Assembly (NCBI GenBank): GCA_008534395.1
Contig: SHMQ01000039.1
Location: 1 to 16,921, forward strand
DNA: 16,921 nt
DNA from: Candidatus Acidulodesulfobacterium acidiphilum
GTDB taxonomy: Bacteria > SZUA-79 > Acidulodesulfobacterales > Acidulodesulfobacteraceae
Direction: 5' to 3'
A model generated the notes under the pieces. That model was not told the DNA's origin and did no database searches. It was given only the letters and a program-made list of their open reading frames with translations. The translations under genes were made by a program, and so were the position numbers. Positions 2,403-15,879 of this stretch are shown piece after piece. The first letter of the stretch is position 1; every line of letters begins with the position of its first letter.

Positions 2403-2467
2403 ACTTTCCCTCCATAATTAAATTTAAATTTTTGATTTGTCTTTTCGCAAAATTTATTGCTTTAATT

Positions 2468-2473
2468 ATCATA
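2468..2473 (-). promoter_or_regulatory. Likely -10 box of the pstS promoter
   Basis: TATGAT on the minus strand (2473-2468). It starts ten bases after the last 7-mer core of the Pho box (TTGTAAT, 2490-2484), the spacing used in activator-dependent Pho promoters where the Pho box replaces the -35 element. An overlapping alternative is GATAAT at 2470-2465. Confidence 0.55.
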
Positions 2474-2479
2474 ACAGAT

Positions 2480-2523
2480 TTTTATTACAATTTTATTACA
2501 TTTATGTTAAATTTTTGTAACAA
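2480..2523 (-). promoter_or_regulatory. Pho box: four tandem 11-bp PhoB/PhoP-type repeats upstream of pstS
   Basis: Read on the minus strand, 2523-2480 is four consecutive 11-base units: TTGTTACAAAA, ATTTAACATAA, ATGTAATAAAA, TTGTAATAAAA. The E. coli Pho-box half-site is CTGTCAT followed by four A/T bases, also with 11-base spacing. Units 3 and 4 match that pattern closely, unit 1 fairly well and unit 2 weakly. The box lies about 80 bases upstream of the pstS start and directs that gene. Confidence 0.75.
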
Positions 2524-2550
2524 TTCTGGCAAGGCCGCAAAATTGTATGA

Positions 2551-2556
2551 TATAAT
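2551..2556 (+). promoter_or_regulatory. Candidate -10 box for the alcohol dehydrogenase gene
   Basis: A perfect TATAAT on the plus strand, about 65 bases upstream of the dehydrogenase start. No convincing -35 element lies at 16-18 bases (GGCAAG at 17), so it may be weak or activator-dependent. The Pho box ends 27 bases upstream, so phosphate-dependent effects on this gene are conceivable but unproven. Confidence 0.4.
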
Positions 2557-2622
2557 AGTCGAAATTAATTTCTTTTATATTAATACCAATGTTAATATTA
2601 ATATTATTAAGGGGGTAAACAC

Positions 2623-3777
2623 ATGACAAAATTCACCATCTATAATCCGGTTAAAATACATTTCGGCGCAGGCATTATTTCTGAAGCGGGAAAAATTGCC
2701 AAGAAATATTCCGATAATGTATTAATAGTTACCGGAAAAAATTCAATGCAAAAAACCGGAACGTTAGATAAGCTTGTTAAAATTTTAAAAGAATCAGGTA
2801 TAACGGTAACTATTTACGACGGTATAACGCCTAACCCCACTATTACCGAAATCGACGAAGCCGCAAAAATCGCAAAGCAAAAAGGCGTCGGCCTAATAAT
2901 AGGTTTAGGAGGCGGAAGTCCGCTCGATTCCGCAAAGGCAATAGCGGTTGCGGCAAAAGGAGATATTCCGGTATGGGAATACTTAAAAACTCAGGCTAAC
3001 GATGCGATTCCGGTTATAACCATAGTTTCAACTTCAGGAACGGGAAGCGAGGTAAACAGATATTCGGTTATGTCCAATCCTGCGACCGGCGAAAAACCGG
3101 GCTTCGGTTATGAATGTATGTATCCGAAAGAAGCCGTAATAGATCCGGAAATAACCTCGTCAATGCCTCCTTATGTAACGGCAACTACGGGTTTTGACGT
3201 TTTTGTCCATATTTTTGAAGCATTTACCGGAAAGGCAAAAAACGAGTTCTCAACTGCATACTGCATGCAGGCGTTTTATCTTTTAAAAGACAATTTGATT
3301 AAAGCATATAACGAACCCGATAATATGCAGGCAAGGGGCAATATGGCGCTTGCCTCGGCGCTCGCGGGACTTGCCATAGATATTTCAGGCGTAGGAATAA
3401 TGCATGCAATGGAACATCCCGTATCCGGAAATTATCCTAATGTTGCGCACGGAGCGGGACTCGCCGTTCTGGCGCTGGAATCTATGAAATACAACTTAAA
3501 CACATGTAAAAGGGATTATATGCTTATAGCGCATCATTTCGGCATTAAAAGAGCGGGCAAAAGCGACGATGAATATGCAATGTCTTTGATAGAAAAGACG
3601 GAAGAGATAATTACCGCTTTAAAACTTAACGTAAAACTCAAAGATCTCGGCGTAGAAAAAGACAAGCTTCAAAAAATTGCAAAAGAATCTTTTATAACTA
3701 TGGGATTTGCTATAGAAAACAATCCTGCAGAAATTGACGAGAACGAAATTTTAAGACTGTTGGAGAATAGCTATTAA
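2623..3777 (+). CDS. Iron-containing (group III) alcohol dehydrogenase
   Basis: NAD(P)-dependent interconversion of an alcohol and an aldehyde or ketone; a cytoplasmic Fe-ADH family enzyme of 384 residues, the normal size. The nucleotide-binding GLGGGSPLDSAKA lies at 94-106 and the family signature STSGTGSEV at 136-144. Metal ligands expected from FucO are present: D192 and H196 (FDVFVH), H261 in the HAMEHP segment and H276 in AHGAG. The spacing between the last two histidines is one residue longer than in FucO. The ribosome site GGGGG seven bases before the ATG supports the start. It is a single gene, divergent from pstS and closed by a hairpin at 3825-3872. Substrate cannot be read from the sequence; butanol-, propanediol- and lactaldehyde-type enzymes share these motifs. 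Confidence 0.9.
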   Translation: MTKFTIYNPVKIHFGAGIISEAGKIAKKYSDNVLIVTGKNSMQKTGTLDKLVKILKESGITVTIYDGITPNPTITEIDEAAKIAKQKGVGLIIGLGGGSPLDSAKAIAVAAKGDIPVWEYLKTQANDAIPVITIVSTSGTGSEVNRYSVMSNPATGEKPGFGYECMYPKEAVIDPEITSSMPPYVTATTGFDVFVHIFEAFTGKAKNEFSTAYCMQAFYLLKDNLIKAYNEPDNMQARGNMALASALAGLAIDISGVGIMHAMEHPVSGNYPNVAHGAGLAVLALESMKYNLNTCKRDYMLIAHHFGIKRAGKSDDEYAMSLIEKTEEIITALKLNVKLKDLGVEKDKLQKIAKESFITMGFAIENNPAEIDENEILRLLENSY

Positions 3778-3824
3778 CGCTATTGATGAGTTTATAAATA
3801 ATGTGCTGATTATTAATGATATTA

Positions 3825-3872
3825 TATATAAAGAGTTACAGCTAACTATTTTTAGCGACAACTCTTTATATA
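3825..3872 (+). terminator. Long hairpin terminator after the alcohol dehydrogenase
   Basis: A perfect 13-base stem (TATATAAAGAGTT at 3825-3837 with its complement at 3860-3872) encloses a second small stem (GCTAA with TTAGC, 3841-3856). On the plus strand it is followed by TTTTATTT, as in an intrinsic terminator. Nothing T-rich follows on the minus strand, although the hairpin also sits just past the end of the zinc-ribbon operon. Confidence 0.7.
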
Positions 3873-3886
3873 TTTTATTTCAAAAA

Positions 3887-4110
3887 TCATGCCAATTTTT
3901 GCCTGCATTTTTCACAAAATTTTGCTTCAGGAGCATTCTTAAAACGCAGTTTGAAACAAATATATTGTTAGGACCATCTTTGTTTACATAAAATTTAGTT
4001 AATACTAATGACGTCGAATTTGTCTTTTTAGCTCTTGCAACAGCTATTAAAATTATAATAACTATAACTATTAACGGGGCAAAATTTGTAAGGTTTTGCA
4101 TTAAATTCAT
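3887..4110 (-). pseudogene. Small membrane protein with C-terminal zinc ribbon, frameshifted
   Basis: The frame starting at 4110 gives MNLMQNLTNF, one membrane helix (about residues 11-25), a basic segment and FYVNKDGPNN, then an unconvincing tail ending at 3880. In the -1 frame from 3967 to the stop at 3887-3889, the DNA instead encodes a zinc-ribbon half: YICFK, then FKNAPEAKFCEKC, then RQKLA. Joining the two frames at about 3965-3969 (one base missing) restores a TM plus zinc-ribbon protein of the kind found twice upstream in this operon. The first ribbon cysteine pair is also damaged: CFKL-R where CxxC-G is expected. It lies 33 bases after the LppM-like gene. It could be a decaying gene, programmed frameshifting or an assembly error. 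Confidence 0.6.
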
Positions 4111-4143
4111 AACGATATTCTACTAATTTTTTAAAAATATAAT

Positions 4144-4815
4144 TTATTCTGCTTTTTTCTTTCTATTCGCTATTAACAAAATCGATATAATAATTATCCC
4201 TACAAACGAGATAAAGAAAATAGCAATAAGTATTATAATTGCGGTATCGGAAGATAAAAAAGATAAAATACCGTTATACGGACGATATATAACATAAGCG
4301 GTTTTTCCATATAAAAAATCAGTTGTATTATTAAAAACCACTATATTTGCAGATTTAATTTTTCCGTCGGTACCGTTTTTCTTTAAAATATTTCCCGGAA
4401 CGTGTACGGTTAACTCGCTAATATTTTTCAGATAGCCGAAATCTAACCTTACGGTATTGTTCTTTTTGTCAACGGTTATTTTTATTCCGGCTCTTTTTGC
4501 ATCGACCCACCTTACAAATACCTTATAATTTAACAATCCATTTTTATCGATAACAGGCTTAGAAACCTTAACATAACTATACTTTTTTAAAAAATGCTCT
4601 TTTATTTTGCTCATAGGATATCCGGTTGGAATATCTAAAAGTCGATAAATGCCATAACCCCCTCCGGTTTTATCGATATGTAAATCTCCGACTACCTTAC
4701 AACCCGGAATTATCAAAAATATAGACAGTAAAGTTAATAATAGCGCTATTTTAAATTTAACTTTTTTATTTTTCATCGTTTCTTTATTTTTAATATTATT
4801 TTCTATTTTTTTCAT
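4144..4815 (-). CDS. Putative lipoprotein with C-terminal membrane anchor, LppM-like
   Basis: Function unknown; 223 residues. A basic N-terminus is followed by a hydrophobic stretch ending IIPGC, a tolerable lipobox with cysteine 39. Next comes a beta-rich extracytoplasmic domain starting VVGDLHIDKTGGGYGIY, and a strong membrane helix at about 192-216 followed by a basic tail (NRKKKAE). A lipobox, a 'GC-x-V-x-D-x-x-I' beginning and a C-terminal helix recall the LppM/DUF3153 family, but this is a resemblance in layout, not a confirmed match. The start is fixed by GGAG seven bases upstream; the in-frame ATG at codon 14 has no ribosome site. It is the third gene of the zinc-ribbon operon, 53 bases after its upstream neighbour. 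Confidence 0.65.
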   Translation of the reverse strand: MKKIENNIKNKETMKNKKVKFKIALLLTLLSIFLIIPGCKVVGDLHIDKTGGGYGIYRLLDIPTGYPMSKIKEHFLKKYSYVKVSKPVIDKNGLLNYKVFVRWVDAKRAGIKITVDKKNNTVRLDFGYLKNISELTVHVPGNILKKNGTDGKIKSANIVVFNNTTDFLYGKTAYVIYRPYNGILSFLSSDTAIIILIAIFFISFVGIIIISILLIANRKKKAE

Positions 4816-4868
4816 ACCATAACTCCGAACGAAATGTTATATTTTATTTTCATTAAAAATAAACTTAA

Positions 4869-5966
4869 TTATCGCACTTTAATATAAGCCGCCGGCGATT
4901 CTTCGATCGTAGCAGCAGAAGTTACCGTAAGAACGTAGGTGTATGTTCCTGCCGGAAAATTAGACGGAATTTTCATGGCAAGATTGACGTTGTAAATTCC
5001 GGGCTTATCGACGTTGACGTAAGAATTGTTATAAGCCGTAAGGCCGTTTCCATAAACTTCGTACGTCAATTTTACGCTCTGCGAAGACTGATTAGGCGGC
5101 GTCTCGGCATAAAATTTGGAATTAATATTAATCGTACTGCCGGGACTAGCGCTGACGTTGTCTGCCATAACGTTTGAAATTATAACAGCAGGGGCATTTC
5201 CCGCTGCACTGCCGAGAGGCGAAATACCGACAATATTCGGGCTTGCAGAACTCAAGTAAGTTTTAAATGCGGAAAACCCACCGGCTCTATTAGTAGGCCT
5301 GCTTGAATTATTATTAGAGTAAACGTAAGTCGGCGCAGAAGAAACATTACCGTTGGGCTGAGAAGAATTAGCGGGATTATTTGAATTAGGTATATTTTTA
5401 ATTATATTTTTATTTTTCTTTGAAGATTTAACTTGACGTTTATGCTTATGTTTATTATGTTTATGTTTTTCGGATTTATTTTTAGTTTTAATGTGAAAAA
5501 CTTTGTATATTTTTTTTTCTACTTTTTTAAGTTTGCCGGTTTTGAATAAAGAAAAAAGAATACCGCCACTACCTATAAATATAATCGCCAAAACAATTAT
5601 AGAGATCAACAATCGTTTTCCTTTTTTACCGCCGCCTTTATTAAGTATTTTCGGTGCTTTGGGAGTTGCCGACGAAAATGCACTATCGCCGCTTGGATTT
5701 TTGAGACTAATACCTTCTTTTGCGTCGTTTTGCATCGAACTTTCGGCCCTGATGCTCGCATCTGCATTGTTTTTGACTAAATTGACGTTATTTTCGGGCG
5801 TTTGAACGGGCGAAGGCGAAGCGTTTGCATTTTTTAAAACGTTAGTATTGTGCGCAGAAGCCTTATCAGATGACGCCTGCTTCCTCTCGAATTTTTGTCC
5901 GCATTTTGGACAGAAATTTGCGTTATCGTTTTCTATTTTCGTACCGCAATTTTTACAAAAAAACAT
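4869..5966 (-). CDS. Zinc-ribbon, single-TM protein with C-terminal Ig-like domain
   Basis: Function unknown; 365 residues. The N-terminal zinc ribbon has cysteines 4, 7, 19 and 22 (CKNC and CPKC). A Ser/Ala/Asn-rich cytoplasmic linker runs to about 115, then one membrane helix at about 118-141. Beyond it lies a very basic His/Lys-rich stretch (about 161-185, including KHKHNKHKHKR), an Asn/Ser/Pro-rich linker to about 240, and a C-terminal beta-sandwich-like region (about 258-364) with alternating hydrophobics, resembling bacterial Ig-like domains that end 'PAGTYTYVLTVTS'. The ribbon is thus predicted inside and the Ig-like domain outside. The ribosome site AGAGGAAA supports the start. It begins 16 bases after the six-TM zinc-ribbon gene ends, so the two are surely co-transcribed. 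Confidence 0.75.
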   Translation of the reverse strand: MFFCKNCGTKIENDNANFCPKCGQKFERKQASSDKASAHNTNVLKNANASPSPVQTPENNVNLVKNNADASIRAESSMQNDAKEGISLKNPSGDSAFSSATPKAPKILNKGGGKKGKRLLISIIVLAIIFIGSGGILFSLFKTGKLKKVEKKIYKVFHIKTKNKSEKHKHNKHKHKRQVKSSKKNKNIIKNIPNSNNPANSSQPNGNVSSAPTYVYSNNNSSRPTNRAGGFSAFKTYLSSASPNIVGISPLGSAAGNAPAVIISNVMADNVSASPGSTININSKFYAETPPNQSSQSVKLTYEVYGNGLTAYNNSYVNVDKPGIYNVNLAMKIPSNFPAGTYTYVLTVTSAATIEESPAAYIKVR

Positions 5967-5982
5967 TTTTTATTTCCTCTTT

Positions 5983-7209
5983 TTAACTAAGTTTATTTCC
6001 GCAATTCTCGCAAAATAAAGCATCGGAAGGATTTTGCGCTCCACAAGCCGTGCAAAATTTTACTCCCGCATCGGTTTTAGCGTCTGATGAACCTGTGCTG
6101 CCTCCATGATTAGTTTGCCGTTCAAGTCCTGCCTGCTGCGGTGGAACATTGTTTGTAAAATCCCCGCCGGAAGTCGTTTGAGAAGTCGTCGTTCCTCCTT
6201 TCATGCTTGCCGCTTTTTCTTTATATTTTTCTATGTTGGATTTTAATTTGGAAGTAACGTCGTTAAACTGTGCATCGACATCGTCAAAATTCATATCTGA
6301 TATTACGTCTAAATATATATAGTTCTGTCCTAACATTAAATATACGAAAAGAAGAACCATTAAGAGCATATATATAATACCTACGCCGAATCCTACAAAG
6401 CCCCCGAACATTGAAAGAGAGGACATGATACCGCCGCCTCCGTTTAACATTCCCAGCATAGAACCGCCGTAACCGCCTGATAATAAATAAGTCGGTCTTG
6501 TAACGGCTAATATCGAAGCCGTAAGAGCAAAAGAACATACGGTCAATAATATAAATATTAAAGCTAAGACAACAAAAACCTGCATTAAAAATATGAAGTA
6601 ACCAAAAAGGAGAGTTGAATGTTTTTTATAAATCTTATAAGCTTTTACTATAATTTCTTTTAAATTATTTCCGTCAAAAACTAAAGGGTTGATCATAAAA
6701 TTGATTAAAAGTATTGCAAAAAACATAATGGCAAAGATTATAGTAAATCCCGGTATTCCAATAAAATCTAAAAGTTTGCCTAACCCGGGTATTTTTGCTA
6801 TGAAAAAATAAATAAGAGAAATTATAACGACTACCAAAGGAACTATGGCTAATATTATTTCTGAAATTAAAATACGGTAAAACGAAAATATTCCGAATAT
6901 TATTGCGTCCATTACGGGAATAGACGCCTTATTTCTGGCATGCTCCATTAATACTTTTCCGGTAGCGGTATAACCTATAAGGTAGATAATAAGGTATAAT
7001 ATTACCCCTATAATAGAAACAAATTTTCCAATAGCGGAATGCCCTCTATACGCCATATCGGTTGCTATAGCAATAGATCCTATTAATATAGCAAATGAAA
7101 TTATAAAAGTTGCCAGCAAAAGAATTATTGCTTTAATACGTTGAAATGCTTCAAAAGATTTGACTAAAATTCCAAATTTAAAAAAGGACTCCCCGCGTGC
7201 GACATCCAT
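5983..7209 (-). CDS. Six-TM membrane protein with C-terminal zinc ribbon
   Basis: Function unknown; 408 residues. About six membrane helices are visible (roughly 26-48, 62-82, 115-137, 155-175, 200-232, 271-294), with a glycine-rich segment at 245-275 between the last two. A cytoplasmic tail follows: an amphipathic segment (DVDAQFNDVTSKLKSNIEKY), a Thr/Ser/Gly-rich linker and a zinc ribbon at the extreme C-terminus with cysteines 386, 389, 400 and 403 (CTAC and CENC). A strong AGGAGG precedes the ATG. It is the first gene of the operon, behind a near-consensus promoter. Similar zinc-ribbon tails occur on many uncharacterised bacterial membrane proteins; no enzymatic motif is visible. Confidence 0.75.
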   Translation of the reverse strand: MDVARGESFFKFGILVKSFEAFQRIKAIILLLATFIISFAILIGSIAIATDMAYRGHSAIGKFVSIIGVILYLIIYLIGYTATGKVLMEHARNKASIPVMDAIIFGIFSFYRILISEIILAIVPLVVVIISLIYFFIAKIPGLGKLLDFIGIPGFTIIFAIMFFAILLINFMINPLVFDGNNLKEIIVKAYKIYKKHSTLLFGYFIFLMQVFVVLALIFILLTVCSFALTASILAVTRPTYLLSGGYGGSMLGMLNGGGGIMSSLSMFGGFVGFGVGIIYMLLMVLLFVYLMLGQNYIYLDVISDMNFDDVDAQFNDVTSKLKSNIEKYKEKAASMKGGTTTSQTTSGGDFTNNVPPQQAGLERQTNHGGSTGSSDAKTDAGVKFCTACGAQNPSDALFCENCGNKLS

Positions 7210-7290
7210 AATTCCTCCTAAAGAATTTCAAAGATTTGATTAAATTATAAGCGATATGTTTATTTTATATTATAATTTAAATTTATAATA

Positions 7291-7319
7291 ACTATATTTT
7301 TTCTAAAAAAAATTGTCAA
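7291..7319 (-). promoter_or_regulatory. Near-consensus sigma-70 promoter of the zinc-ribbon operon
   Basis: On the minus strand TTGACA (7319-7314) is separated by exactly 17 bases from TATAGT (7296-7291): a perfect -35 and a five-of-six -10 at optimal spacing. Transcription would start near 7284, giving a leader of about 75 bases before the start at 7209. The AT-rich 146-base gap holds no other obvious element. Confidence 0.75.
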
Positions 7320-7355
7320 GAATTTTTTGCTAATTTTTTACTAAATAAATGATTA

Positions 7356-8867
7356 CTAAATAATTATTTTTAGCGCAGATATTTTTTTTTGTAAATTGCG
7401 GCGGCTCATGCCGATAGTTTGTGCAGTTTTAGTTACGTTGCTCCCGTTTTCTTTTAGTTTGCGAATCAGGTATGCTCTTTCAAAATTTTCTTTTGCCTGC
7501 TGAAATAAATCGGCAGACATAATACTTTCGATATTATTTGAATTTTCACGGCACAATATATTTTCGCCGGATGAATAATTCAAGTGAGATTGCTTTGCAT
7601 CTTCGACTGCATAAAAGCCGTCGGATTTTATAGGCGCAGTCAAAGATATGCTTGAAATGACGCTTTCCGTTTCCGAAATAACTCTACCGTTATTTTCCGC
7701 GACAGCCGGATACTTAATTTTTAATTCCGCGGCGACGTCTTCGGCGGTTACTTTATTATATAGATTTAAAATAGAAAACCTTTCTATGATATTTTTAAGT
7801 TCCCTGACGTTTCCCGGCCAGCTATAACCTTGCAGTAACTCCAAAGCGGAACGGTCTATCTCTAATCTGCCGGTATTGCCGCTAAAAATTTTAACAAAAT
7901 AATTTACTAAAAGAGGTATGTCGCTTTTTCTTTCCCTTAACGGCGGTATATAAAGCGGAATAACGTTAAGCCTGAAAAAAAGATCGCTTCTGAATCTGCC
8001 CGATTTAATTTCCTCTTCGAGATCTTTATTAGTAGCGGCGATAACCCTGACGTCTGACTCAATTTCGTTATCTCCGCCTATCCTTTGAAATTTGCCTTCC
8101 TGTAAAACCCTCAATATTTTTGACTGCATTCTCAGGCTCATATCGCCTATTTCGTCTAAAAAAAGTGTCCCTCCGTCGGCTAATTCGAATTTTCCTTTTT
8201 TTCTAGCCGCCGCTCCCGTAAAAGCTCCTTTTTCGTAACCGAAAATTTCGCTTTCTATAAGCTCTTCCGGTATAGCGGCACAGTTAATTGCTATAAAAGG
8301 CTCGCTGCTCCTCAGGCTGTTAATATGAACCGACCTCGCTGCAATCTCTTTTCCGGTGCCGTTTTCTCCGGCAATAAGAACGGGAGCCGAAGACGGGGCC
8401 GCCTTATATATCTTTTCCCTTAGATTTTTAATAGATTCTGCCTCGCCGATAAGTTCGAAACTGTTAGGCAGACTTTCTGCCAAAATAGCTTTCTTTTCGT
8501 TAAGGCTGTTATATTTTAATGCGTTTTCTACCGTAATAACGAGTCTGTCTAAAGAAAGCGGTTTCTCTATAAAATCGTAAGCTCCTATTTTTATAGTTTT
8601 AATTGCCGTATCTATATCGGAATGACCCGAAATCATAATTACCGGAATGTTTTTGTTTATCCTGACCATTTCACGTAAAATATCCGAGCCGTCGGAATCG
8701 GAAAGCCAGACGTCCAATAAGACTACGTTAGGCGATTTGTCGGCAAAGGCGTTTAATCCGGCTTTTCCGCCTGCCTCTGTTATTACCGAGTAGCCTTCGT
8801 CTTTAAGAATTCCGGAAAGAGAACTTCTTATGCTTTCTTCATCGTCCACTATCAATACAATCTTCAT
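7356..8867 (-). CDS. ntrX: Sigma-54-dependent response regulator, NtrX type
   Basis: Transcription activator of the NtrC/NtrX class, 503 residues. The receiver domain (1-120) keeps acidic residues D8 and D9, phosphoacceptor D52, S80 and K102. The AAA+ domain carries Walker A GENGTGKE (167-174), the sigma-54 contact motif GAFTGA (214-219) and Walker B LFLDEI (235-240). A Fis-type helix-turn-helix occupies about 475-500 (NVTKTAQTIGMSRRNLQKK), preceded by the NtrX-like LFQQAKENFERAYLIRKL. A linker of roughly 70 residues between AAA+ and DNA-binding parts (about 384-452) has low complexity. AGAGGT before the ATG supports the start. It lies downstream of ntrY on the same strand, as its cognate regulator. 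An NtrC-type assignment is less likely given the NtrY partner. Confidence 0.88.
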   Translation of the reverse strand: MKIVLIVDDEESIRSSLSGILKDEGYSVITEAGGKAGLNAFADKSPNVVLLDVWLSDSDGSDILREMVRINKNIPVIMISGHSDIDTAIKTIKIGAYDFIEKPLSLDRLVITVENALKYNSLNEKKAILAESLPNSFELIGEAESIKNLREKIYKAAPSSAPVLIAGENGTGKEIAARSVHINSLRSSEPFIAINCAAIPEELIESEIFGYEKGAFTGAAARKKGKFELADGGTLFLDEIGDMSLRMQSKILRVLQEGKFQRIGGDNEIESDVRVIAATNKDLEEEIKSGRFRSDLFFRLNVIPLYIPPLRERKSDIPLLVNYFVKIFSGNTGRLEIDRSALELLQGYSWPGNVRELKNIIERFSILNLYNKVTAEDVAAELKIKYPAVAENNGRVISETESVISSISLTAPIKSDGFYAVEDAKQSHLNYSSGENILCRENSNNIESIMSADLFQQAKENFERAYLIRKLKENGSNVTKTAQTIGMSRRNLQKKISALKIII

Positions 8868-13970: not shown

Positions 13971-14111
13971 ATTGTCTTATATATCTTATTATTTTAAAAA
14001 TTGCTTTAAAATTATTGACTATATTATTTAAAAATATTAAAATTAATCTAAGCCGTATTTGATATAGTAATTTTATATTGTACCAAAAATTATAAATATT
14101 TTAAAGATGAC

Positions 14112-14116
14112 GGAGG
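14112..14116 (+). promoter_or_regulatory. Ribosome binding site deciding the start at 14122
   Basis: GGAGG, five bases before the ATG at 14122. An in-frame ATG five codons earlier (14107) overlaps the upstream side of this site and has none of its own, so the later start is chosen. Confidence 0.75.
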
Positions 14117-14121
14117 TTGTT

Positions 14122-15879
14122 ATGTCGTATAATTTAATTTTTATAGACGAAAGCGAATCGATGCAAAGAGCTATAACTGCGATACTACAGGACAATACCG
14201 AATTCAACCTCAATCTTGTTAAAGAACCTTCGTCTATTTACAAAGTTGCAAAAAATTTTAAGCCTGATATTATAGTACTGAGCTATAATTCTATCGACAC
14301 CGATCTAAAGAAAAGCATAACGGAACTTAAAACAAGCAAAGAGTTTGCAGAAACTCCCCTTCTTCTATTAGTTCCTTCTGATTTGTCCGATAAGGAGAGA
14401 GACGTTCTTATTAAATTAAAAACGGACGGCTTTATATACAGGCCGTTCGACAAAGATACGTTTATCTTAAAAGTAAAAAAAGCGCTGTCTATTCCCGACG
14501 AAGATAAATCCGGAAAAATTTCGGGAGATATCGCTTCCGAAAACAAAAAAAACGACTTAAACAAAATTAAGTACGCGGCTAAAAATAATGTTATTAAAAG
14601 CGATAAAGTATTCGACATTTCAGATTTTGAAACTAAAAAAAATAACGAAAATTTAGATTTTCAAAACATATCAAATGCTTTATCGCCTAAGAAAGATAAT
14701 AATAATGAGGGCGGCTATGAAAATGCGGCGTCGGATACCGAAAATTCAGATATCGAATCGGCAGAACTCAGCCAGGCGTTTGAAAATTTATTTAAAGACG
14801 ATGCTATATTCAAAGAATTTGAAGAATTAAACAAGAAAGACGTCCGGCTTTCGGCTGCAGAAGATTCGAATATTATATCCAAAACCGAAACGACAGCAGG
14901 CGCAACTCGGATGCAGGAAATTGAAACAAGCTCAGCCTATGATATAACGCAAACCGGAGAAGAAAAAAATGAAGCGCCTATATCGATTACCGGAACCCAA
15001 AATAAATTGGAAACGGAACCGGCTTCCGATATTAAAAAAACTGAAGAACCGACCGATATTGCGGAAATAAAAATTTCGGAACCGTTTTCATACGAAAAGA
15101 TTCAGGAAACTTCATTAGAGCCGCAAACTCAACAGATTAATACCGACAAGGAAAACGATATACGGAAGACGGAAGAAATTGAAAAATCTGCCGATACTTT
15201 ATGGAGTATAGAATCTTCAGATTCTTTCGAGCCTAATCCGCTTAACGAACTAATGTCTTCTATAAACGTAAATCAAACATCGCGGAACGTTAATAATGCA
15301 GATGATATAAATAACGGTATTTTTGATCTTAGCGCTCCGGAAAGCGGACTTGAAATTAACGCCGATTCTTTAAAAGGAACAGAAGAAGCGTCCGAACAAA
15401 TAAATGTTGCGGAACAAAATAGTTTAACGGGTTATGGGTCAAATAAAAATCAAACTTCCATAGACGTTAATATTAATAATAATGCAGATGATATAAATAA
15501 CGGTATTTTTGATCTTAGCGCTCCGGAAAGCGGACTTGAAATTAACGCCGATTCTTTAAAAGGAACAGAAGAAGCGTCCGAACCACACTTGGCGGCTCTC
15601 GAGAAACAACAGCCGAATAATCAGGATTTCAATGAACCTTTTGCCGGATTCAATATCGCGTTAAGCGAAGAAAAAACTTCAACCGAAAAAAAAGGAGAAT
15701 TAAAATTGAAAATTTTAAACGAACAGAATCTTGCCGATATGGATTCTTATCTTAAAAATGCTATAGAAACAGTCATTAGCGAAATTAAACCCGATATTAT
15801 TGAAACAGTGAAAAAAATGCTTCCAGATATTATTGAAAAGATAGTCAAAGACGAAATAGAAAAAATTAAACAGTCTTAA
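14122..15879 (+). CDS. Pseudo-receiver protein with acidic repeat region and PopZ-like tail
   Basis: Function unknown; 585 residues from the start chosen by GGAGG at 14112. Residues 1-122 have the fold pattern of a response-regulator receiver: LIFIDESESM with the acidic pair D9/E10, PDIIVLSYNS, and FIYRPFDKD before the last helix. The phosphoacceptor Asp is replaced by S54 and the conserved Lys by R107, so conventional phosphorylation is unlikely. Residues about 125-525 are low-complexity, acidic and rich in Asn, Ser, Glu and Thr, with an exact internal duplication of about 35 residues (DDINNGIFDLSAPESG twice). The C-terminus (about 530-585) is amphipathic helix, ending IKPDIIETVKKMLPDIIEKI then VKDEIEKIKQS, like the tails of PopZ-type and some deltaproteobacterial receiver proteins. 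It is followed at 6 bases by nadC. A scaffold or polarity role is speculation. Confidence 0.7.
   Translation: MSYNLIFIDESESMQRAITAILQDNTEFNLNLVKEPSSIYKVAKNFKPDIIVLSYNSIDTDLKKSITELKTSKEFAETPLLLLVPSDLSDKERDVLIKLKTDGFIYRPFDKDTFILKVKKALSIPDEDKSGKISGDIASENKKNDLNKIKYAAKNNVIKSDKVFDISDFETKKNNENLDFQNISNALSPKKDNNNEGGYENAASDTENSDIESAELSQAFENLFKDDAIFKEFEELNKKDVRLSAAEDSNIISKTETTAGATRMQEIETSSAYDITQTGEEKNEAPISITGTQNKLETEPASDIKKTEEPTDIAEIKISEPFSYEKIQETSLEPQTQQINTDKENDIRKTEEIEKSADTLWSIESSDSFEPNPLNELMSSINVNQTSRNVNNADDINNGIFDLSAPESGLEINADSLKGTEEASEQINVAEQNSLTGYGSNKNQTSIDVNINNNADDINNGIFDLSAPESGLEINADSLKGTEEASEPHLAALEKQQPNNQDFNEPFAGFNIALSEEKTSTEKKGELKLKILNEQNLADMDSYLKNAIETVISEIKPDIIETVKKMLPDIIEKIVKDEIEKIKQS
15291..15397 (+). 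repeat. 107-bp exact direct repeat, copy 1
   Basis: Begins TAATAATGCAGATGATATAA and ends GAAGCGTCCGAAC. Identical over all 107 bases to 15477-15583. It is in frame inside the pseudo-receiver gene. Confidence 0.97.
15477..15583 (+). repeat. 107-bp exact direct repeat, copy 2
   Basis: Second identical copy, offset by 186 bases (62 codons), so it preserves the frame. Flanking QTS and V-N residues are also similar just before each copy, suggesting the original duplicated unit was longer and has begun to diverge outside the exact core. Confidence 0.97.

What the first reader, a model, noticed from the sequence alone, without database searches (positions are those of the whole stretch)
3887..7319. 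Undescribed envelope operon built around zinc-ribbon membrane proteins
Four adjacent genes under one near-consensus promoter combine a six-TM protein with cytoplasmic C-terminal zinc ribbon, a single-TM protein with cytoplasmic N-terminal zinc ribbon and an external Ig-like domain, an LppM-like double-anchored lipoprotein, and a broken TM plus zinc-ribbon protein. Repeated ribbons on the cytoplasmic side and beta domains outside suggest one membrane complex. I know of no named system with this composition.
Basis: inference. Interest (0 to 1): 0.65.

Follow-up and report, generated by a model that had tools for sequence, protein, structure and literature searches.

The report
Zinc-ribbon membrane protein pair, orphan operon
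In an uncultured acid-mine bacterium, two inner-membrane proteins with small zinc-binding tags on the cell's inside are always encoded side by side, with optional partners, and most likely form an envelope-sensing unit found only in this small bacterial family; its function is untested.

Summary
The genes are real. [quoted passage not shown] P2 (4869-5966) has an N-terminal ribbon, one TM and an external Ig/FnIII-like beta-sandwich. P3 (4144-4815) is a lipoprotein with a C-terminal TM. P4 (3880-4110) is the remnant of a 255-residue ribbon protein, intact in two relatives. A near-consensus promoter is conserved in relatives. 'LppM-like' is not supported by sequence searches. P1 and P2 are neighbours in 11 of 11 genomes with P1, at two unrelated chromosomal sites and in both gene orders: a conserved pair. 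P2-P4 pairs also occur without P1. P3 is an add-on. P1's membrane body was found only in this family (Ca. Acididesulfobacter and relatives). In genus g2 the pair often precedes a vWA-FHA-PP2C-kinase cluster whose kinase and FHA proteins carry ribbons, but genome-wide co-occurrence is not significant. Best reading: an envelope-sensing membrane unit held together or docked by cytoplasmic ribbons; complex and signal are inferred, not shown. Closest analogues in design are B. subtilis YdjG/YdjH/YdjI-PspA and TcaA-type proteins, whose defining domains are absent here.

The parts
5983..7209 (-). P1: polytopic membrane protein (6 to 8 hydrophobic segments) with cytoplasmic C-terminal zinc ribbon (residues about 382-406)
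   Evidence: body without any Pfam/NCBIfam/PDB match; dN/dS 0.13 against G005
4869..5966 (-). P2: N-terminal zinc ribbon (residues 4-22), low-complexity linker, TM 119-141, linker, external beta-sandwich about 244-350
   Evidence: ribbon dN/dS 0.016, external domain 0.18
4144..4815 (-). P3: lipoprotein (lipobox-like IIPGC, Cys39) with C-terminal TM 192-216; optional member
3880..4110 (-). P4 remnant: pseudogene of a 255-residue protein (TM, conserved core around two TMs, C-terminal ribbon) intact in G005 and G012
3887..3958 (-). ribbon remnant of P4, read in another frame (CFKLRFKNAPEAKFCEKCRQKLA)
   Evidence: sequence
7291..7319 (-). sigma-70-like promoter TTGACA-17-TATAGT, conserved in G005 and G012
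3824..3873 (.). terminator-like hairpin (-20.4 kcal/mol) between the P4 remnant and the convergent Fe-ADH gene; no strong U-tract on the operon strand
7356..8867 (-). context only: NtrX-like response regulator, own gene upstream of the promoter
2623..3777 (+). context only: iron-containing alcohol dehydrogenase, convergent

Best explanation
P1 and P2 are the co-inherited core of an inner-membrane unit. P2 is a receptor-like protein: its external Ig/FnIII-like domain contacts something in the periplasm or cell surface, and its TM and flexible linkers connect this to the cytoplasmic ribbon. P1 is the polytopic membrane partner, with its own ribbon on the same cytoplasmic side. The ribbons serve as docking modules, to each other or to further ribbon-bearing proteins. 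P4 (intact in relatives, a dead remnant here) and P3 are optional subunits. Shown: gene content, ribbons, shared conserved promoter, P1-P2 linkage, purifying selection, loss of P4. Inferred: physical complex, sensing, docking role of the ribbons, and any output.
For: P1-P2 adjacent in 11 of 11 genomes with a full-length P1 among 99 relatives. The sites are unrelated: ntrX/Fe-ADH in the window's genus, ispD/gltX side in genus g2; order is reversed in G012. Presence of P1 and a P2-type protein in the 30 family genomes: Fisher p 1.4e-6, not corrected for phylogeny. P1 and P2 distance matrices track each other (r 0.72 overall, 0.92 within g2), which shared descent would also give. Promoter kept ahead of whichever gene is first. 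Purifying selection, strongest on P2's ribbon (dN/dS 0.016) and P1's membrane body (0.10), while linkers evolve faster. P2-P4 pairing recurs without P1 in G023 and G026. Nearby in g2, LemA, FHA and kinase proteins also carry ribbons.
Against: No direct evidence of contact: the AF2 model of P1 is poor (pLDDT 48.7) and no complex could be modelled. Zinc ribbons of this type are very common on unrelated proteins (ribbon-only hits in many genomes), so a shared ribbon is weak evidence of a shared complex. The unit is absent from most of the genus, so it is dispensable. No ligand, enzyme or output is identified.
Confidence: 0.45

Rival explanations
1. The pair is the membrane arm of the vWA-FHA-PP2C-Ser/Thr kinase cluster that follows it in genus g2: the ribbon-bearing kinase or FHA protein docks on P1/P2 and regulates them or reads them out.
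For: In g2 the order is P1-P2-lipoprotein-small membrane protein(s)-vWA-ribbon+FHA-PP2C-ribbon+kinase on one strand. The same cluster exists in the window's genome at G000:C43.
Against: Co-occurrence in the 30 family genomes is not significant (6 of 11 P1+ against 5 of 19 P1-; Fisher p 0.24). G021 and G023 have P1-P2 without the cluster; G003, G008 and G020 have the cluster without P1; in the window's genome the two are on different contigs.
Confidence: 0.2
2. Envelope-stress module working like B. subtilis YdjG/YdjH/YdjI-PspA: ribbon-bearing membrane proteins recruit a membrane-repair protein.
For: Same design of several ribbons in one membrane operon; YdjG has two ribbons plus TM plus an NTF2-like domain, and the band-7 protein has a C-terminal ribbon (PMC11237479); deletion of ydjG or ydjH abolishes PspA recruitment (PMC8581546).
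Against: No PspA, band-7 or TPM domain among the proteins of the window's cluster or of its relatives' clusters that were scanned. P2's outer domain is a beta-sandwich, not NTF2-like.
Confidence: 0.12
3. Co-transcribed but unrelated proteins: the neighbourhood is only inherited gene order and the ribbons are generic.
For: All genomes with P1 are from one family; ribbons are common; P3 and P4 come and go.
Against: Linkage survives a change of chromosomal site and a swap of gene order, which passive inheritance does not explain well.
Confidence: 0.15
4. P1 is a transporter or channel and P2 its accessory or gate.
For: P1 is polytopic with a well-conserved body.
Against: No match to any transporter family.
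Confidence: 0.08

Closest known systems
B. subtilis pspA-ydjGHI envelope-stress operon (ribbons in YdjG and the band-7 protein)
   Same: Several proteins of one membrane operon carry zinc ribbons; ribbon + TM + outside domain in YdjG
   Different: No PspA, SPFH/band-7 or TPM domain here; outer domain of P2 is an Ig/FnIII-like sandwich; P1 body unrelated to any known family
TcaA-type membrane proteins (S. aureus TcaA)
   Same: N-terminal ribbon, single TM, large extracellular part (TcaA layout beyond the ribbon from general knowledge)
   Different: P2 matches no TcaA model; only the ribbon of a distant P2 paralogue touches NCBIfam TcaA (E 0.0045, 15.8 bits against cut-off 550)
TerY-P triad (vWA, PP2C, kinase with zinc ribbon)
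   Same: The cluster next to P1-P2 in genus g2 has vWA, PP2C and a ribbon-bearing kinase
   Different: Ribbon is N-terminal, an FHA protein is added, the kinase is membrane-bound with an external cytochrome c-like domain; not part of the window's locus
LppM (mycobacterial lipoprotein)
   Different: No detectable sequence relation by Pfam or PDB profile search

Membership tests
Zn_Ribbon_1 (PF13240) domain proteins | CxxC-x(10-11)-CxxC ribbon above gathering score | tested here: met
   P1 30.4 and P2 27.7 bits against 25; P4 of G005 27.6; the window's P4 remnant does not
TcaA family | full-length TcaA model (NCBIfam teico_TcaA) | tested here: not met
   window P2 has no TcaA hit at E<=1
TcaA family | ribbon - TM - extracellular architecture | tested here: met
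PSP / Ydj envelope-stress operon | PspA and/or band-7 protein in the operon | tested here: not met
   no such Pfam match among the cluster proteins scanned
PSP / Ydj envelope-stress operon | recruits PspA to the membrane | not testable with these tools
   needs experiment
LppM family | sequence match to an LppM model (Pfam) or to a solved LppM chain | tested here: not met
LppM family | LppM fold | not tested
Ig/FnIII-like outer domain (P2) | beta-sandwich fold of Ig/FnIII type | tested here: inconclusive
   seven strands at pLDDT about 70-90; best Z 5.8, many Ig-like/FnIII neighbours (RbmA, CARDB, GH2 domains), below a level that proves relation
TerY-P triad | vWA + PP2C + kinase with ribbon in the window's operon | tested here: not met
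   cluster is elsewhere in this genome (G000:C43); adjacent only in genus g2
bacterial PH-like domain (P4 core) | match to a bPH-type Pfam family | tested here: inconclusive
   weak DUF6232 E 0.0014 and bPH_7 E 1.3

The most novel reading that the evidence does not exclude
P1-P2 is a new class of membrane signalling unit whose cytoplasmic zinc ribbons form a docking code shared with a Ser/Thr kinase that carries a c-type cytochrome-like domain outside the membrane, so that envelope state and electron flow are read by one ribbon-assembled complex in iron/sulfur acidophiles.
Probability: 0.1. Interest if true: 0.75.

Novelty: new variant of a known kind. Interest (0 to 1): 0.4.

Why it matters
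Zinc ribbons on bacterial membrane proteins are common and rarely explained. A pair that stays together through relocation and gene-order change, with a partner (P4) that also pairs with a P2 paralogue elsewhere, gives a small and testable case of whether ribbons act as docking tags. It also marks a lineage-restricted envelope protein family in poorly known acid-mine-drainage bacteria. The functional claim is untested.

Tried and rejected
P1 relatives outside the family: profile search of 386 genomes gave, beyond the family, essentially only ribbon hits; a scan of 84,980 species gave 9 loci, all close relatives (pattern-based, so distant ones could be missed); none in viral contigs or plasmids. 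Fold search with the P1 model was not run because the model is poor. Fold search with the P2 model: no Foldseek match below E 0.001, so no specific family can be named for its outer domain. Anti-phage defence: no PADLOC match for P1, P3 or P4 and only an E 0.004 hit over the low-complexity linker for P2; the kinase hits there are generic kinases. P3 as equivalent of the g2 lipoprotein: no similarity. Obligate link to the kinase cluster: rejected by distribution. Clean empty site for the cassette: not obtainable; in P1-negative relatives ntrX is followed by a porin-like/GlnK/Amt set and Fe-ADH lies elsewhere, and in G002 both flanks stop at contig ends, so its absence there is uncertain. A literature search for the cytochrome-kinase architecture found nothing, which is weak evidence given the library and terms.

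Full report
What is there. On the minus strand between ntrX (7356-8867) and a convergent iron-alcohol dehydrogenase gene (2623-3777) lie P1 (5983-7209), P2 (4869-5966), P3 (4144-4815) and a 76-codon frame at 3880-4110. Gaps are 146, 16, 53 and 33 bp, with a good ribosome-binding site before P1 (AGGAGG) and P2. A promoter-like TTGACA-17-TATAGT stands at 7319..7291. The same 11-of-12 element is found ahead of P1 in G005 and ahead of P2 in G012, where the order is P2-P1-P4. A hairpin of -20.4 kcal/mol lies at 3824-3873. This is a plausible operon; no expression data were seen.

The proteins. P1 and P2 carry zinc ribbons above Pfam's cut-off; the four cysteines are invariant in all relatives aligned. 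P1's membrane body matches no family or solved structure. Its AlphaFold2 model is poor (pLDDT 48.7), with about six long helices, while a simple topology model gives eight segments, N and C termini inside by a small margin. P2 is modelled as ribbon, disordered linker, TM, disordered linker, and a seven-strand domain at 244-350 with pLDDT mostly 70-90. Structural neighbours at Z 4.5-5.8 are mostly Ig/FnIII-like sandwiches (RbmA, CARDB, GH2 domains), and the profile's best PDB sequence hits are antibody heavy chains at marginal E 0.02. 'Ig-like' is therefore reasonable but not proven by homology. P3 has a lipobox-like IIPGC and a C-terminal TM; a relation to LppM could not be detected by sequence.

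P4. Relatives G005 and G012 have an intact 254-255 residue protein there: TM, conserved core with two further TMs, C-terminal ribbon. Against G005, the window copy keeps the first 50 or so codons and the ribbon, and lacks about 546 bp between two short direct repeats of the type TATTTGTT(T)CAA; one further base is lost within the ribbon. The near-identical locus of genome G011 shares this. P4 is a pseudogene here. Its core gives only weak hints of a bacterial PH-like domain (DUF6232 E 0.0014, bPH_7 E 1.3).

Distribution. In 99 relatives P1 occurs full-length in 11 genomes of one family: 4 of 16 in the window's genus and all 7 of genus g2 (one g2 record is Ca. Acididesulfobacter diazotrophicus). 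P2 is the neighbour in all 11. The sites differ: ntrX/Fe-ADH in the window's genus, next to ispD/ispF- and gltX-like genes in g2 (gene names from sequence recognition, not from a search). P2-type proteins with two ribbons pair with P4-type proteins, without P1 beside them, in G023:C66 and G026:C180. P3 is found only in G000, G005, G011 and, unlinked, in G065/G210 of another family. P4's core, without ribbon, recurs in G048 and G266 in other surroundings. Beyond the family, P1's profile finds essentially only ribbons. Absence in incomplete or broken assemblies (G002, G010) is not reliable.

Selection. Nei-Gojobori dN/dS against G005: P1 0.13, P2 0.20, P3 0.27, ntrX 0.10, Fe-ADH 0.05; P2's ribbon 0.016, P1's body 0.10, linkers 0.24-0.37. 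Synonymous changes are high for P1 and P2 (dS about 0.85-0.89), so these are rough. The intact genes are under constraint.

Wider neighbourhood. In g2 the pair is followed by a lipoprotein unrelated to P3 and, variably, a superinfection-immunity-like 81-residue protein, a TM2-like protein, or LemA-ribbon plus TM2-SHOCT. In G016, G025, G027 and G029 a vWA protein, ribbon-FHA protein, PP2C and (where the fetched stretch reaches it) ribbon-kinase come next. The window's genome has this cluster on another contig. Presence of P1 and of the cluster's PP2C is not significantly associated (p 0.24). Zinc-ribbon kinase/PP2C/vWA triads are known as TerY-P (described in PMC11090510 after Anantharaman et al. 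2012).

Interpretation. The robust claim is that P1 and P2 are functional partners: linkage persists through change of site and order. That P2 and P4 also are partners is likely. That the ribbons hold the unit together or dock it to other ribbon proteins is an inference from their repeated presence and strong conservation; ribbons are common, so this is weak on its own. An envelope-sensing role follows from P2's shape only. Precedent for the design is the B. subtilis pspA-ydjGHI operon, where ribbon-bearing and membrane proteins recruit PspA (PMC11237479, PMC8581546), but none of its defining domains is present here.

Verdict. The most surprising by-product is a kinase with an external cytochrome c-like domain.

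Noticed in passing
L078:4628-6454 (own genome G000:C43), L038:16007-17941, L041:414-2306, L079:9376-11118, L081:13712-15409, L082:12839-14635, L084:10532-12259: Ser/Thr kinase with N-terminal zinc ribbon, one TM and a C-terminal mono-heme c-type cytochrome-like domain (invariant CFYCH and SSMPPxPxMP) that should lie outside the membrane; Pfam Cytochrome_CBB3 E about 4e-4 to 4e-5 in four of them, below cut-off. Possible redox-sensing kinase.
   Followed up: partly
window 3880-4110: P4 pseudogene apparently formed by deletion between short direct repeats plus a frameshift, shared by two near-identical loci.
   Followed up: yes
window 2432-7356; L127, L129: The cassette may sit at a rearrangement junction: in P1-negative relatives ntrX is followed by a porin-like gene, glnK and amt, while in the window's genome that set lies next to the kinase cluster on contig C43.
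   Followed up: partly
L040:5580-6738: In G027 a LemA protein with C-terminal zinc ribbon and a TM2-SHOCT protein replace the usual lipoprotein and small membrane protein after P2.
   Followed up: no
window 14107-15879: Response-regulator receiver-like N-terminus (E 0.0014), long low-complexity middle, DUF2497-like C-terminus (E 0.0024); contains a near-exact internal repeat (NNADDINNGIFDLSAPESGLEINADSLKGTEEASE).
   Followed up: no
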